A stretch of 64,000 nucleotides of DNA from Geothrix sp. PMB-07 (lineage in GTDB: Bacteria; Acidobacteriota; Holophagae; Holophagales; Holophagaceae), in NCBI RefSeq assembly GCF_030758935.1, contig NZ_CP132333.1:868992-932991 (forward strand), given 5' to 3'. Made by a program: the position numbers and the translations under genes. This document shows, in pieces, positions 17,286 to 23,240 of this stretch; the first letter of the stretch is position 1; the number at the start of each line of letters is the position of its first letter. The notes under the pieces are model-generated. The model did no database searches, was not told the origin of the DNA, and saw only the letters and a list, made by a program, of their open reading frames with translations.

Positions 17286-19118
<1,833 letters not shown>

Positions 19119-19190
19119 GATCCGCTCCCACAGTAGGACTGACCCTAACGGACCCACACCTGAGGTCCAATGTGGTGGGTGCCACCCGCC

Positions 19191-19233
19191 CTGAGGTTTG
19201 CCTCAGACACACCCTGTGGTGGATTCACCACAG
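19191..19233. repeat. Two short perfect hairpins upstream of glmS
   Basis: CTGAGG-tttg-CCTCAG (19191-19206) and CTGTGGTG-gatt-CACCACAG (19214-19233) lie next to each other 73-115 bases upstream of glmS. They could be operators or leader hairpins of glmS. Confidence 0.45.
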
Positions 19234-19385
19234 CGTGGCTAAGTTCCCATGGGTACTGCGTCTGAGAAGCATGGGCCATTGCCTCTGAGCCATGGACTGA
19301 CTCCACGGCGAGGCGGCTGCACTGGGCCCAACAACGAGACGAGATGGGAACCTGGGGATTAGCTTAAAGGCGCCAGAGTGTTGTT

Positions 19386-19407
19386 CGTCGGCGCCATGGT
19401 GCCGACG
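19386..19407. repeat. 22-bp near-perfect palindrome
   Basis: CGTCGGCGCCATGGTGCCGACG matches its reverse complement at all but one base pair. It lies in the 532-base gap between glmS and the peptide gene, upstream of the putative promoter. It could be an operator or a transcription barrier. Confidence 0.5.
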
Positions 19408-19441
19408 GGCATGGTTTTCATGCGAAACGGGTTGTCGGGTG

Positions 19442-19469
19442 TTCACAACCGTTTGGCGGCCTCTAAACT
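19442..19469 (+). promoter_or_regulatory. Candidate promoter of the peptide/ATP-grasp pair
   Basis: TTCACA (5 of 6 to the -35 consensus) and TAAACT (4 of 6 to -10) are spaced by 16 bases. Transcription from about 19476 would give a leader of some 175 bases with three strong hairpins. The -35 box lies in the right arm of a bulged 10-bp stem (19425-19454). Confidence 0.4.
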
Positions 19470-19500
19470 TGGCAAACCTCATCCAATAGCTGTTGGACGA

Positions 19501-19602
19501 TGCGGGCAAACCACGGCCGTGGTCGCCCGCACGGGGGAGCTGTCTGCCCCCTGCCAGTTAATGCACGTTCCCAGCAACCCGTTCGTGGACGGCCGGGTTG
19601 CT
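19501..19602 (+). repeat. Hairpin-rich leader of the peptide gene
   Basis: Three inverted repeats follow one another: TGCGGGC...GCCCGCA (19501-19531) enclosing a 14-base palindrome ACCACGGCCGTGGT; a GGGGG...CCCC stem (19533-19551); and AGCAACCCG...CGGGTTGCT (19573-19602). They end about 50 bases before the peptide start codon. A structured regulatory leader is possible; no known riboswitch was recognised. Confidence 0.5.
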
Positions 19603-19650
19603 CCCCCCAAACCGGCCCGCGAGGGTCAACTTGAATGAAGAGGTTCCACC

Positions 19651-19848
19651 ATGAATCGAGAGAAAGAGAGCCGTTTGCTGGGCCGCCTGTTGGCGGTGGA
19701 AATCAGCAAGGAACAGCTTGAGGGCGTCGTTGCGGGAAGCAGTATTAATAGCAAGTCCCACCCGCCCAAGATGCGGAAGGATCGCGATGTCCCTGGCGGT
19801 ACGCAATCCGGGAATTTTGGCAGCCTGGATGACAATAGCGGTTGGTAA
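19651..19848 (+). CDS. Putative graspetide (RiPP) precursor peptide
   Basis: 65-residue peptide with a good ribosome-binding site (GAAGAGG, 7 bases upstream of ATG). The first half looks like a RiPP leader: charged MNREKESR, an amphipathic helix LLGRLLAVEISKEQLEGVVA and a GS pair at about residues 29-30 that resembles a double-glycine-type cleavage point. The second half is hydrophilic, with SINSKSHPP then DRDVPGGTQSGNFGSLDDNS and a terminal GW; it carries Ser/Thr and Asp side chains that could be cross-linked by the downstream ATP-grasp ligase. The sequence is richer in A+T than its neighbours. The family of the precursor is not one I recognise, so the role is inferred from its ligase partner. 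Confidence 0.65.
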   Translation: MNREKESRLLGRLLAVEISKEQLEGVVAGSSINSKSHPPKMRKDRDVPGGTQSGNFGSLDDNSGW

Positions 19849-19901
19849 TGAATGGATCTCTGGTGGCTGATTTCGATCAGTCGCTTTGTTGTTGATCTCC
19901 A

Positions 19902-19934
19902 GAAGTGCCATGGTTGGCAAAACCATGGCACTTC
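19902..19934 (+). terminator. Perfect 14-bp hairpin between peptide and ligase genes
   Basis: GAAGTGCCATGGTT and AACCATGGCACTTC form 14 uninterrupted pairs around a 5-base loop (GGCAA), 54 bases after the peptide stop. The tail is CATTTG, not a full T-tract. It could be a partial terminator or an RNA-stabilising hairpin that lowers ligase expression relative to the peptide. Confidence 0.6.
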
Positions 19935-20007
19935 CATTTGAGGATCAAGACTGGGGTCTGCGTTCACGATTTCCCGATTGTTGCACCTTGTCGGAGGCCT
20001 GATTTCC

Positions 20008-21135
20008 ATGGCTCACGTATTCATCCAAACCCACGCCAACGATGTGCATGCCGCGGCGGTAGCCCTGGTGCTTCAAGGTCAAGGTCACCGGGCCACCCGA
20101 TGGTTTTGTGGAGATTTCCCCGAGCACAGCATGGTGTCCTTGGCGCTTGGCGGATCACTTCATACGGGTAGCGAAGAAGGCTTGCTCCTTGCAGATCTTG
20201 CAGGGGATGTGAATGCCTCGGGCATAGATGTTTTCTGGAATCGCAGAATCGGGATGCCTGATATCCGCCGGAAGATGCATGAGGGTGATCGGAAGTTCGC
20301 CGTTCGGGAATCCCGGGTGGCCATGTCTGGGGCGCTGAACCTGATCGGAGATGCCGCCTTTTCGGTGAACCCTCTCTGGCATTCGGAGCGCGTGGAGAAC
20401 AAGCTGGTGCAGCTCTCGGCGGCGAGAAAGTTGGGTTTGAACCTTCCGGAAACGTTGGTATCCAACGATCCGGCGCGCATCCGTTCTTTCCTGGAGAGGC
20501 ACCAGTCGACTGGGGCCATCTACAAACCATTCCGCCCCGCCACCTGGGAATCGGAGGAGGAAGCAGCCCTGCTCTATACCGCCAGGCTGGAGGCTTCGCA
20601 GCTGCCCGAGGACGACCTTCTGAGGGTTTGTCCCGGCATTTATCAGGCCCTCGTACCGAAGGCGTACGAAGTTCGAGTGACCTGCATGGGAAATCAGTTG
20701 TTTCCAGTGAAGCTGGACTCCCAGGCGACTGAACAAGGCAAGCTGGACTGGCGTGCGGAGAGCTACCTGGAACTGGGAGCGACGCCCATTGACCTGCCCG
20801 AAGCCATTCAGACCCAGTGCAAGACGTTGCTGGCCCGCCTGGGGCTTGTATTCGGTTGCATCGATCTGATCGTCACCCCCGAGGGAGACCATGTGTTCCT
20901 TGAGGTGAATCAGATGGGTCAGTTCCTGTGGGTGGAGGAATGCTGCCCAGAGCTTCCCCTGCTGGAAACTTTCTGTGAGTTCCTCGTAAGCCGTGATCCT
21001 GGCTACGTGCGGGACCCGCGAAGACCACACCAGATCTGCTTTGCCGACATCCACGAAGAGGCTTCCAACTTGCTCTACGACGAGCAGGAAAAACTGAACC
21101 GGCCCGAGGAACGCAGCCACGTCATGCAGGAGTGA
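20008..21135 (+). CDS. ATP-grasp peptide ligase of the microviridin/graspetide (MvdD-like) family
   Basis: 375-residue ATP-grasp enzyme expected to form ester or amide cross-links between side chains of a ribosomal peptide. The pre-ATP-grasp domain ends in a family-typical segment NPLWHSERVENKLVQLSAAR (121-140) and LGLNLPETLVSNDPARIRSF; MvdD-type enzymes have NP..I..AENKLLQL and P.T..TNDP here. ATP-binding and metal residues are visible as YKPF (172-175), the E-x-R pair EVRV (221-224), D286 in CIDLIV, and E299/N301 in FLEVNQMGQFLWVEE. Start ATG at 20008 has GGAGG 10 bases upstream; a longer frame from 19978 is less likely. It follows the peptide gene by 159 bases. No transporter or acetyltransferase is beside it. 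Confidence 0.85.
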   Translation: MAHVFIQTHANDVHAAAVALVLQGQGHRATRWFCGDFPEHSMVSLALGGSLHTGSEEGLLLADLAGDVNASGIDVFWNRRIGMPDIRRKMHEGDRKFAVRESRVAMSGALNLIGDAAFSVNPLWHSERVENKLVQLSAARKLGLNLPETLVSNDPARIRSFLERHQSTGAIYKPFRPATWESEEEAALLYTARLEASQLPEDDLLRVCPGIYQALVPKAYEVRVTCMGNQLFPVKLDSQATEQGKLDWRAESYLELGATPIDLPEAIQTQCKTLLARLGLVFGCIDLIVTPEGDHVFLEVNQMGQFLWVEECCPELPLLETFCEFLVSRDPGYVRDPRRPHQICFADIHEEASNLLYDEQEKLNRPEERSHVMQE

Positions 21136-21221
21136 CTGAAGCCCGTCGCTTGGATGGCGGGTGCATTCGACTTGGCTGGGAGAGGCCCGCAACGCGGCCT
21201 GCTGGGTGGGATGAAAGCGAT

Positions 21222-21281
21222 GCCCGGCTGGGCCGGGCCGAGTGCGGGGGCCAGGGGGTGTGCGCGCAGCGGGGAACCCCC
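21222..21281. repeat. Hairpins between the ATP-grasp gene and fliY/N
   Basis: In the 155-base convergent gap are GCCCGGC-tgg-GCCGGGC (21222-21238) and GGGGGT...ACCCCC (21254-21281). They may act as terminators for the two converging units, though neither has a T-tract. The rest of the gap shows nothing. Confidence 0.35.
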
Positions 21282-21290
21282 GGGACAGTA

Positions 21291-22220
21291 TCAGGCCAGG
21301 CTGCGGATCCTTGCGGCGCGGGTGTCGATTTCCGTGATGCGGAACGCGAAGTTGCCTTCCACCACCACGACTTCACCCTTGGCGATGAGCTTGCCGTTGA
21401 CGAGCAATTCCACCGGCGCGTCCGCGCTGCGGTTCAGTTCGAGGATGGCGCCAGGGGTGAGCTTCAGGAGTTCGCCCATCTGCATTTCGGTCTGGCCCAT
21501 GCGGACCACCACGGGCAGCTGGATGTCCAGCAGCAAGTCCAGGTTGCCTGCGTCGGTGGGCGGTCCGGAGGCCACGGGCGCCTGGCGCACGGGCGCGGCG
21601 ATGGTGGCGGCCACGGAGGCGGGAGAGGGCTCCGGCGCCGCGGCGGGCGCGTCCACGAGGCCCAGCTTCCGTTTGAGCTGCTGCAGGAGGAGGTCGGGGA
21701 AAAGGAGGTGGACGGTCGTGCTCAGGGAATCCTGGCTGGTGGGCAGACGCAAATCCTGGAAGCCGCCCTGGCCCAGCTGCTCGGCGAAGGCCGCTGCTTC
21801 GGGGGCCATGGCCATGATTTCCACATTGGAGATGGCGAAGGTCTCCCCCGCCAGATCCGACAGGGTCTGGTTGGCGCTGCCCATGACCTGGTTGAAGGTC
21901 TCGGCCAGGGCATCCTTGGAATCCCCCACCAGTTCCTCGGCGGGGGCACCTTCGCCGCCCAGCATGAGGTCCACCAGCATGGTCCCCTCTTTGAGGGGCA
22001 GGGTGAAGAAGAGGGTGCCGCTGAGTCCCTTCTGGTAGTTGGCCTTGACGAGGATGCCAGGGCCCTCCTGCAGGCCTGCGATGGCCGCGGTCTCCAGCAG
22101 GTCGCCGGCTTCGGACTGCATCTGGAAGTCGCGGCCCGTGAGCATGGAGAACACGGAAGCCATGCTCTCGGCGAAGGCGCCGCCGACTTTTTGGAAGAAT
22201 TCCATATCACGGGCATCCAT
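21291..22220 (-). CDS. fliY: Flagellar motor switch protein FliN, with CheC-like N-terminal domain (FliY-like)
   Basis: 309-residue protein, more than twice the length of plain FliN. The C-terminal 80 residues are a SpoA/FliN domain (LDLLLDIQLPVVVRMGQTEM, LTPGAILELNRSADAPVELLVNGKLIAKGEVVVVEGNFAFRI). The N-terminal 170 residues look like the CheC/FliY domain (GTLFFTLPLKEGTMLVDLMLGG; DALAETFNQVMGSANQTLSDLAG), joined by a Pro/Ala linker (about 190-220). FliY in Gram-positives and Thermotoga can dephosphorylate CheY-P; activity here is not shown. It follows fliM by 3 bases. Confidence 0.88.
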   Translation of the reverse strand: MDARDMEFFQKVGGAFAESMASVFSMLTGRDFQMQSEAGDLLETAAIAGLQEGPGILVKANYQKGLSGTLFFTLPLKEGTMLVDLMLGGEGAPAEELVGDSKDALAETFNQVMGSANQTLSDLAGETFAISNVEIMAMAPEAAAFAEQLGQGGFQDLRLPTSQDSLSTTVHLLFPDLLLQQLKRKLGLVDAPAAAPEPSPASVAATIAAPVRQAPVASGPPTDAGNLDLLLDIQLPVVVRMGQTEMQMGELLKLTPGAILELNRSADAPVELLVNGKLIAKGEVVVVEGNFAFRITEIDTRAARIRSLA

Positions 22221-22223
22221 GGT

Positions 22224-23240
22224 TCACCCTTCCGACCGGCTGCCGGTCACTTGGAACACGCGCTTGCCATTGGGATTCAGGGCCACCAGGCCCATGAACC
22301 GCGGAATGCCGTCCACGCAAAGATCCAGCTCTGCGTCGAAGCGCTTGGTCAGCGGAATGAGGTCGCCCACCTTCAGCTGGAGGACTTCCTCCATGGTGAG
22401 GTTGGTGCCCCGGATTTCGGCGGCGGCCTCCATGCCGCAGCGCTTCAGGCTGGTCATGAGCAGGCGGGCCTCCTCGAACGTGGAGGACTTCTTGTAGCCC
22501 GTGAACATCTCCTGGTCGAACTTGCTGGAGATGGGTTCGAGGATGATGCTCGGGATGGCCAGGTTGATCATGCCGCTCACGGGCCCCATCTTCACTTCGA
22601 AGACCACCAGCAGCACCACTTCATTGGGGGCCACGATCTGGATGAGCTGGGGGCTGGTTTCTCGGGCCTGGATGCGGAAATCCAGATCCACGATGCCGCG
22701 CCAGGATTCGCGCATGTCCTCGAGCAACAGCTTGAGGATGCCGTCGAAAATGCTCTGCTCGATGTCGGTCATCGTGCGGAGGTTCTTCAGCGGTTCGCCG
22801 GGGCCGCCCAGCATCTTGTCGATGATGGGGAACACCAGGGTGGGGTTCACCTCCAGCGCCAGGGCGCCTTCCAGGGGCTTGATGGAGATGGCGTTGAAGC
22901 AGGTGGGATCGGGCACCGAGAGCAGGAATTCCTGGTAGCTGAGCTGCTCCACGCTCACCAGGTTCACTTCCGTGATGGTGCGGAGGTAGGCGCTGAGGGA
23001 ACTGGAGAAGTTGCGAGCGAAGCGGTCGTGCATGAAGTGCAGCGAGCGCATCTGCTCGCGGCTGACGCGGTCGGGACGGCGGAAGTTGTAGAGGGTGACC
23101 TTGCGTTGTACCTGGGCTTTTTTTGCCGGAGCGGGCGCCGCACCCCGGTCCGATCCCCCCCCGGCCGAAGCCTTCCCGGCCGGCTTGGTATGGGACTTAA
23201 GTAGTGCGTCTACTTCCTCTTGGCTTAGGATTTTGGCCAT
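22224..23240 (-). CDS. fliM: Flagellar motor switch protein FliM
   Basis: 338-residue switch protein that binds phosphorylated CheY. The extreme N-terminus carries the CheY-binding motif MAKILSQEEVDALLKS, then a short linker, the middle CheC-like domain (YNFRRPDRVSREQMRSLHFMHDRFARNFS; LSVPDPTCFNAISIKPLEG) and a C-terminal SpoA domain (TNLTMEEVLQLKVGDLIPLTKRFDAELDLCVDG). Length is standard. It lies 3 bases after fliA ends and 3 before fliY/N starts. Confidence 0.98.
   Translation of the reverse strand: MAKILSQEEVDALLKSHTKPAGKASAGGGSDRGAAPAPAKKAQVQRKVTLYNFRRPDRVSREQMRSLHFMHDRFARNFSSSLSAYLRTITEVNLVSVEQLSYQEFLLSVPDPTCFNAISIKPLEGALALEVNPTLVFPIIDKMLGGPGEPLKNLRTMTDIEQSIFDGILKLLLEDMRESWRGIVDLDFRIQARETSPQLIQIVAPNEVVLLVVFEVKMGPVSGMINLAIPSIILEPISSKFDQEMFTGYKKSSTFEEARLLMTSLKRCGMEAAAEIRGTNLTMEEVLQLKVGDLIPLTKRFDAELDLCVDGIPRFMGLVALNPNGKRVFQVTGSRSEG

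What the first reader, a model, noticed from the sequence alone, without database searches (positions are those of the whole stretch)
19651..21135. Two-gene graspetide-type RiPP cassette with an unfamiliar precursor
A 375-residue ATP-grasp ligase of the microviridin class (ERVENKLVQL, LVSNDP, YKPF, FLEVNQMGQFLW) lies after a 65-residue peptide whose N-terminal half looks like a RiPP leader. Known groups have repeated Thr/Ser-acidic cores; this core (DRDVPGGTQSGNFGSLDDNS) has none. The peptide region is richer in A+T and stands alone between glmS and flagellar genes, without a transporter, so export or another tailoring step may be missing or elsewhere.
Basis: partly seen in the sequence, partly recalled or inferred. 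Interest (0 to 1): 0.88.

Follow-up and report, generated by a model that had tools for sequence, protein, structure and literature searches.

The report
Minimal graspetide cassette with GG-type leader
Two adjacent genes, a short peptide and an enzyme that probably ties its side chains into rings, form a rare mobile peptide-making cassette that looks like a new branch of a known natural-product class.

Summary
The finding is real. Window 20008-21135 encodes a graspetide-type ATP-grasp ligase (nearest solved structure MdnC, 5ig9); 19651-19848 encodes its likely precursor. What is shared is a 22-residue leader block, R(V/I)L(A/G)...(S/A)GG; cores are hypervariable, 13 of 20 with Cys. In the window the block ends in Ala-Gly.

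The cassette is about 2 kb of foreign-looking DNA inserted between glmS and fliN; that site is nearly empty in three same-genus genomes and holds other cargo in others. At least 6 of the 20 loci have a C39-peptidase ABC transporter close by. The window has none, but its genome has one, in a class I lanthipeptide cluster, which might process the peptide in trans (inferred). A perfect 14-bp hairpin separates peptide and ligase; four relatives have hairpins there too. Ester links from T51/S53/S58 to D60/D61 are inferred, untested. New variant of a known kind; not matched to a published group, whose sequence sets I could not see.

The parts
19651..19848 (+). precursor peptide gene, 65 aa, stop included
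   Evidence: leave-one-out model ranks it first of 612 ORFs; peptide of the same kind at 19 of 20 family loci
19672..19737 (+). leader block R8-G29 (22 residues), ends in Ala-Gly where most relatives have Gly-Gly
19738..19845 (+). predicted core S30-W65 if cut after G29 (inferred)
   Evidence: register with relatives' GG; cleavage itself not tested
19801..19833 (+). T51-D61, TQSGNFGSLDD: best candidate residues for ring closure (inferred)
   Evidence: GT...LDD shared with L014; core alone 213 of 10,000 shuffles
19902..19934 (+). perfect 14-bp inverted repeat with 5-base loop between peptide and ligase; likely attenuator (inferred)
   Evidence: no clear run of T follows, and the terminator scan did not list it
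20008..21135 (+). graspetide-type ATP-grasp ligase, 375 aa, with extra C-terminal helix 345-364 in the model
19226..21212 (.). DNA that replaces about 100 bp of the glmS-fliN spacer of a same-genus genome (probable insert)

Best explanation
A minimal two-gene graspetide cassette. The precursor is read first; a hairpin after it may keep precursor transcript in excess of ligase transcript. The ligase binds the leader (about R8-G29), uses ATP to phosphorylate an Asp side chain of the core (best candidates D60, D61), and a nearby Thr or Ser hydroxyl (T51, S53, S58) attacks it, closing one or two macrolactones. The leader is then cut after A28-G29 (or G49-G50) and the product exported, most simply by the C39-peptidase transporter of the genome's lanthipeptide cluster. 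Shown: both genes, ligase family and fold, the conserved leader and its linkage to this ligase type, the insertion, no transporter beside the cassette, one C39 match in the genome. Inferred: the chemistry and its sites (about 0.6 for esters at some of these residues), attenuation (about 0.6), processing in trans (about 0.45). The biological target is unknown; competition with other bacteria or protease inhibition would be by analogy only.
For: Ligase: TIGR04187 1.4e-62, TIGR04184 1e-57, PF21068 33 bits over a cut-off of 27; PDB 5ig9 4.4e-44; model pLDDT 85.1 with MdnC, AMdnB, MdnB, a Chryseobacterium graspetide ligase, PruB and PsnB ranked above RimK. Peptide: 8 of 9 loci of the first scan; best hit in 10 of 11 whole genomes or records, two of them untrained; 7 of 8 further stretches, the miss having a ligase of the other type; one more untrained, L055. 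C39 transporter near at least 6 of 20. Insertion.
Against: Ligase scores are below every NCBIfam curated cut-off. No linkage has been observed. Core similarity is weak and unalignable over most of the family. No transporter beside the cassette. The microviridin leader motif is absent. One family locus, L019, has no clear precursor (0.77). The whole-genome leave-out score is only 0.053. The 14-bp hairpin lacks a run of T, and 7 of 12 peptide-ligase gaps have no stem of 9 bp.
Confidence: 0.8

Rival explanations
1. The ligase does not close rings in the peptide but adds something to it, or acts on another substrate, as RimK-like or PGM1-like ATP-grasp enzymes do.
For: The ligase branch is divergent (below all curated cut-offs), has N-Q-M-G-Q where MdnC has N-P-V-G-E, and an extra C-terminal helix. 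Cores show no common ring pattern.
Against: All top structural matches are ring-closing graspetide ligases, with RimK lower; rimK_fam only 0.0015; the peptide with a leader is linked to it at 19 of 20 loci.
Confidence: 0.1
2. The peptide is modified and kept inside the cell or released by another protease, not a C39 transporter, and acts for example as a regulator.
For: No transporter beside the cassette; block ends in Ala-Gly, not Gly-Gly; no C39 transporter was seen in the fetched stretches of many relatives, although several stretches end early and not every ORF was scanned.
Against: The GG register is kept in most relatives (Gly at block position 21 in 18 of 20, at 22 in 17 of 20); C39 transporters near at least 6 of 20; a C39 transporter exists in the genome.
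Confidence: 0.35
3. The short ORF is chance and the ligase stands alone.
For: Short ORFs are common; the core is poorly conserved.
Against: First of 612 ORFs with a model that excludes it; whole peptide against L014, 0 of 10,000 shuffles; same kind of peptide at 18 of the other 19 loci.
Confidence: 0.03
4. The cassette is a decaying remnant of a larger cluster that lost its transporter.
For: Relatives have transporters and HlyD proteins next door; the window has only two genes.
Against: Both genes are intact with ribosome-binding sites; the ligase keeps the residues invariant in twelve relatives; some relatives also show no transporter in the stretch fetched, so two genes may be a normal form.
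Confidence: 0.15

Closest known systems
Microviridins (MdnA with MdnB/MdnC; PDB 5ig8, 5ig9)
   Same: ligase fold and family; leader plus core precursor next to the ligase
   Different: no PFFARFL-type leader (motif as described in PMC8939145); double-glycine-type leader instead; N-Q-M-G-Q in place of N-P-V-G-E; extra C-terminal helix; one ligase, not the MdnB/MdnC pair (the pair and the microviridin core motif are recalled)
Graspetides with peptidase-containing ABC transporters (several of the 43 groups in PMC13097080)
   Same: PCAT or NHLM-type transporter with double-glycine-like leader in several groups; ligases of TIGR04187 type occur (MirB)
   Different: no group could be assigned: sequence sets were not available; window has no transporter beside it
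Branch 4 ATP-grasp loci of Makarova et al. 2022 (PMC8939145)
   Same: as described there: gammaproteobacterial members, double-glycine peptidase, an erythromycin-esterase-like enzyme, precursors largely not predicted; here L039 has a C39 transporter and L020 a Tiki/ChaN-superfamily neighbour
   Different: a lead only; no accession in the main text allowed a test
CTB family bacteriocin leader (NF038167)
   Same: window peptide matches at 0.0096, below cut-off
   Different: marginal, one of 19 relatives matches; no further shared feature tested

Membership tests
Graspetides (class) | ATP-grasp ligase of the graspetide synthetase family | tested here: met
   scores below NCBIfam curated cut-offs, above the Pfam one
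Graspetides (class) | precursor with leader and core encoded beside the ligase | tested here: met
Graspetides (class) | Thr/Ser/Lys donors and Asp/Glu acceptors placed for ring closure in the core | tested here: inconclusive
   present in the window and in each of the 20 tabulated cores, but no common pattern; shared GT...LDD only with L014
Graspetides (class) | side-chain ester or amide links, loss of 18 Da each | not testable with these tools
   needs co-expression and mass spectrometry
Graspetides (class) | Phhx(1,2)h leader motif (found in about half of precursors, PMC8939145, so not defining) | tested here: not met
   no Pro in the first 30 residues of the window peptide
Microviridins (group 1) | PFFARFL leader | tested here: not met
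   absent
Microviridins (group 1) | MvdC/MvdD ligase at equivalog level | tested here: not met
   195.8 against a cut-off of 475 and 185.4 against 425
SAV_5884-type graspetide ligases (TIGR04187) | curated model score | tested here: not met
   211.7 bits against 350
Double-glycine-leader peptides exported by C39 transporters | small-residue doublet in the GG register | tested here: met
   A28-G29; relatives mostly GG
Double-glycine-leader peptides exported by C39 transporters | cognate C39 peptidase transporter | tested here: inconclusive
   none beside the cassette; one C39 match in the genome, G000:C1:2037383, inside a lanthipeptide cluster

The most novel reading that the evidence does not exclude
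The N(Q/E)xGQF ligases are a functionally distinct branch whose often Cys-rich cores (SCSCGGADDC, DTCTCTGCPTND) carry a native linkage not yet seen in graspetides, such as a Cys-to-Asp thioester, the Cys-free window core being an ester-making relative; and the leader is interchangeable between RiPP pathways, so that a two-gene cassette can plug into whatever C39 transporter its new host already has.
Probability: 0.12. Interest if true: 0.75.

Novelty: new variant of a known kind. Interest (0 to 1): 0.5.

Why it matters
It adds a coherent, rare, patchily spread branch of graspetide ligases, tied to one short leader and hypervariable cores, found here in Pseudomonadota, Myxococcota and the window's own (unnamed) phylum. 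If the transporter is borrowed from a lanthipeptide cluster, it would show how a minimal RiPP cassette can move between hosts without its own export. It might also supply precursors for a ligase branch for which an earlier survey mostly found none (a lead, not a result).

Tried and rejected
Rejected: chance ORF; microviridin membership; RimK-type ligase as nearest kin. Phage origin: one distant hit in the viral collection, 31% (L052), and PHROGs gave only a RimK-like family at 9.5e-9. Promoter: one sigma-70-like site, 19442-19469, against 0.4 expected; not used. Terminator-like sites: 4 against 2.1 expected; not used. Curated precursor families: in NCBIfam the best of 19 relatives is 0.0004 (TIGR04149, 2 of 19), window peptide 0.0096 to NF038167; none in Pfam. 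Wider ligase searches gave few matches, all ligase types counted: 7 of 150 relatives at 1e-3, 9 of 297 at 1e-60, 2 of 282 at 1e-60, 6 of 369 and 2 of 385 at 1e-65, each count including the centre genome; plasmids 80 records at 1e-5, of which I opened two. Literature: graspetide with Enhygromyxa and ATP-grasp with Geothrix gave 0 papers; graspetide with Acidobacter gave 2, seen as listing only; some searches were wider and seen as listings, apart from the four papers cited. I saw no description of this branch, but the 2021 survey of graspetide groups is not held, nor a 2023 review, and no supplement could be read, so an earlier listing cannot be excluded.

Full report
What is there. A 65-aa ORF at 19651-19848 and a 375-aa ORF at 20008-21135, both on the plus strand, each with a ribosome-binding-site-like sequence, lie between glmS and fliN, both on the minus strand. 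GC is 52-62% from 19550 to 21199, against 65-70% over 17300-19099 and 64-72% over 21200-22249. GC at third codon positions is 0.66 (peptide) and 0.69 (ligase) against 0.90 (glmS) and 0.87 (fliN).

The ligase. It matches NCBIfam TIGR04187 (211.7 bits), TIGR04184 (195.8) and TIGR04185 (185.4), all below their curated cut-offs, and Pfam PF21068 above its cut-off. The best PDB sequence is 5ig9 (4.4e-44), MdnC with MdnA by the title. An AlphaFold2 model from ten sequences has mean pLDDT 85.1; Foldseek ranks MdnC, AMdnB, MdnB, a Chryseobacterium graspetide ligase, PruB and PsnB above RimK. The model has an extra helix at 345-364; the C-terminal extension is present, at varying length, in the relatives aligned. 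Where MdnC has N-P-V-G-E the window has N-Q-M-G-Q. In a tree of 34 ligases chosen by a motif script, 15 with N-(P/S/A)-x-G are split from 19 with N-(Q/E)-x-G-Q at 100/99, and the window pairs with L014 at 97/93. The strict NQMGQFLW of the first ten is partly a selection effect, since that string was among the patterns of the scan; L038, L039, L053, L055 and L084-L088, found by other routes, have N-E-(M/Q/S)-G-Q.

The peptide. The single genome-contig scan gave nine loci, L014-L022. Eight have, on the same strand and within about 470 bases of the ligase, a short ORF with a leader like the window's; L019 has only a weak candidate (0.77). A model of nine peptides (A2, window included) was run on eleven whole genomes or records: its best hit was the ligase-linked peptide in ten, with none in the genome of L019; two of the records were not in training and gave 3.5e-8 (L038) and 7.6e-8, 1.6e-6 and 2.5e-3 (three tandem peptides in L039). 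On eight further stretches it found peptides in seven (L053, L084-L089; 8e-12 to 0.0034, best other ORF 0.97) and none in L090, whose ligase is of the other type. In L087 and L088 one gene lies between peptide and ligase. A leader model trained on these found one more, in L055 (4.5e-5). Together 19 of 20 loci have a peptide: window, L014-L018, L020-L022, L038, L039, L053, L055, L084-L089 (L089 with a ligase cut short); L019 is the exception. With the window peptide left out, the A2 model ranks it first of 612 window ORFs (3.2e-5, next 0.75); the A4 model, of 19 more divergent peptides, ranks it first in its genome but at 0.053.

Leader and core. Twenty peptides were tabulated with a 22-residue block (three block ends set by hand; L018, the middle L039 peptide and the L019 candidate were not tabulated): Arg first in 19, V or I second in 18, A or S eighth in 20, E or D fifteenth in 17, V/I/L nineteenth in 20, Gly at 21 in 18 and at 22 in 17. 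Mean pairwise identity is 39% for the block and 23% for the cores by a lenient global measure. Thirteen of 20 cores hold Cys. Window against L014: whole peptide and leader, 0 of 10,000 shuffles reach the score; core alone, 213 of 10,000. Core against L016, L017, L015: 190, 507 and 1,395 of 3,000, not significant.

Insertion. None of the 20 same-genus genomes listed has a ligase match at 1e-3 (123 further genomes without a match are not listed). fliN was found in 12 of 18 other same-genus genomes searched; 11 of the 12 were fetched. Nine of the 11 stretches also hold glmS; none has a match to the ligase or peptide at 1e-5; L075 and L082 show no glmS in the stretch held. Between the two matches L073, L074 and L077 have only 265-283 bp; window 19167-19225 and 21213-21283 match the two ends of the L074 spacer, so the insert is about 19226-21212 in place of about 100 bp. 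Other genomes carry other cargo there: a Fer4 protein (L076, and L078 by DNA at 85%), an Xre/MbcA antitoxin with a RES toxin (L080), and other DNA not identified (L079, L081, L083). So this is an accessory-gene site.

Regulation and export. A perfect 14-bp inverted repeat with a 5-base loop lies at 19902-19934; the RNA between the genes folds with z -3.57. Of twelve peptide-ligase gaps, five have perfect stems of at least 9 bp: window, L014, L015, L039, L084. In the ten gaps long enough to test, those five lengths were reached in 0, 0, 2, 0 and 2 of 300 shuffles; the other five were not unusual (26 to 118 of 300). An attenuator is likely but inferred; no clear run of T follows the window hairpin. 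C39-peptidase ABC transporters stand near the cassette in L014, L016, L017, L018, L039 and L055, at least 6 of 20; not every ORF of the others was scanned and several stretches end early. The window's genome has one C39 match, in a cluster with a lantibiotic dehydratase, a LanC-like protein and HlyD. Processing there is my inference; a review notes that RiPP leader proteases are often not encoded in the cluster (PMC10885120, passages).

Known relatives. PMC8939145 (abstract, sections 5-7, passages) describes 174 families and a branch 4 with mostly unpredicted precursors. PMC13097080 (abstract, introduction, section 7, passages) reports 21,584 predicted graspetides, 24 earlier groups and 19 new ones, some with peptidase transporters. 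I could not place this family in any group. Graspetide ligases can form thioesters with non-native donors (PMC13097080 introduction; PMC12291112, passages), which makes the Cys-rich cores worth a test.

Verdict. A real two-gene cassette, best read as a graspetide, in a divergent ligase branch with its own short double-glycine-type leader. Chemistry, processing and function are not shown.

Noticed in passing
L024 3162-14027 (G000:C1 about 2.033-2.044 Mb): Class I lanthipeptide cluster in the same genome: dehydratase, LanC-like protein, HlyD, a C39-peptidase ABC transporter and a possible Cys-rich precursor ending GGLSYFVCRTDYCGTKGRSCWC.
   Followed up: partly
window 19158-21290; L073-L083: The glmS-fliN spacer is a variable cargo site in the genus: near-empty, graspetide cassette, Fer4 protein, Xre/RES toxin-antitoxin pair, or longer unidentified DNA.
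   Followed up: partly
L084 3065-4126, L085 2237-3313, L086 3217-4224; also L039 6115-7161, L088 6190-7164: A protein of about 320-360 aa next to the ligase in gammaproteobacterial-type loci; HEAT repeats by Pfam in the first three, no Pfam match in the last two. Possible partner or immunity protein.
   Followed up: partly
L039 4331-4948: Three tandem precursors with one leader type and unrelated cores before one ligase, on a plasmid, followed by HlyD and a C39 transporter.
   Followed up: partly
L020 7366-8154: Tiki/ChaN-superfamily protein (PF04187) after the precursor, perhaps like the erythromycin-esterase-like enzyme of branch 4 in PMC8939145.
   Followed up: no
L019 2304-3512: JmjC/cupin-type protein just before the Mesorhizobium ligase, the one locus without a clear precursor; possible tailoring oxygenase.
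   Followed up: no
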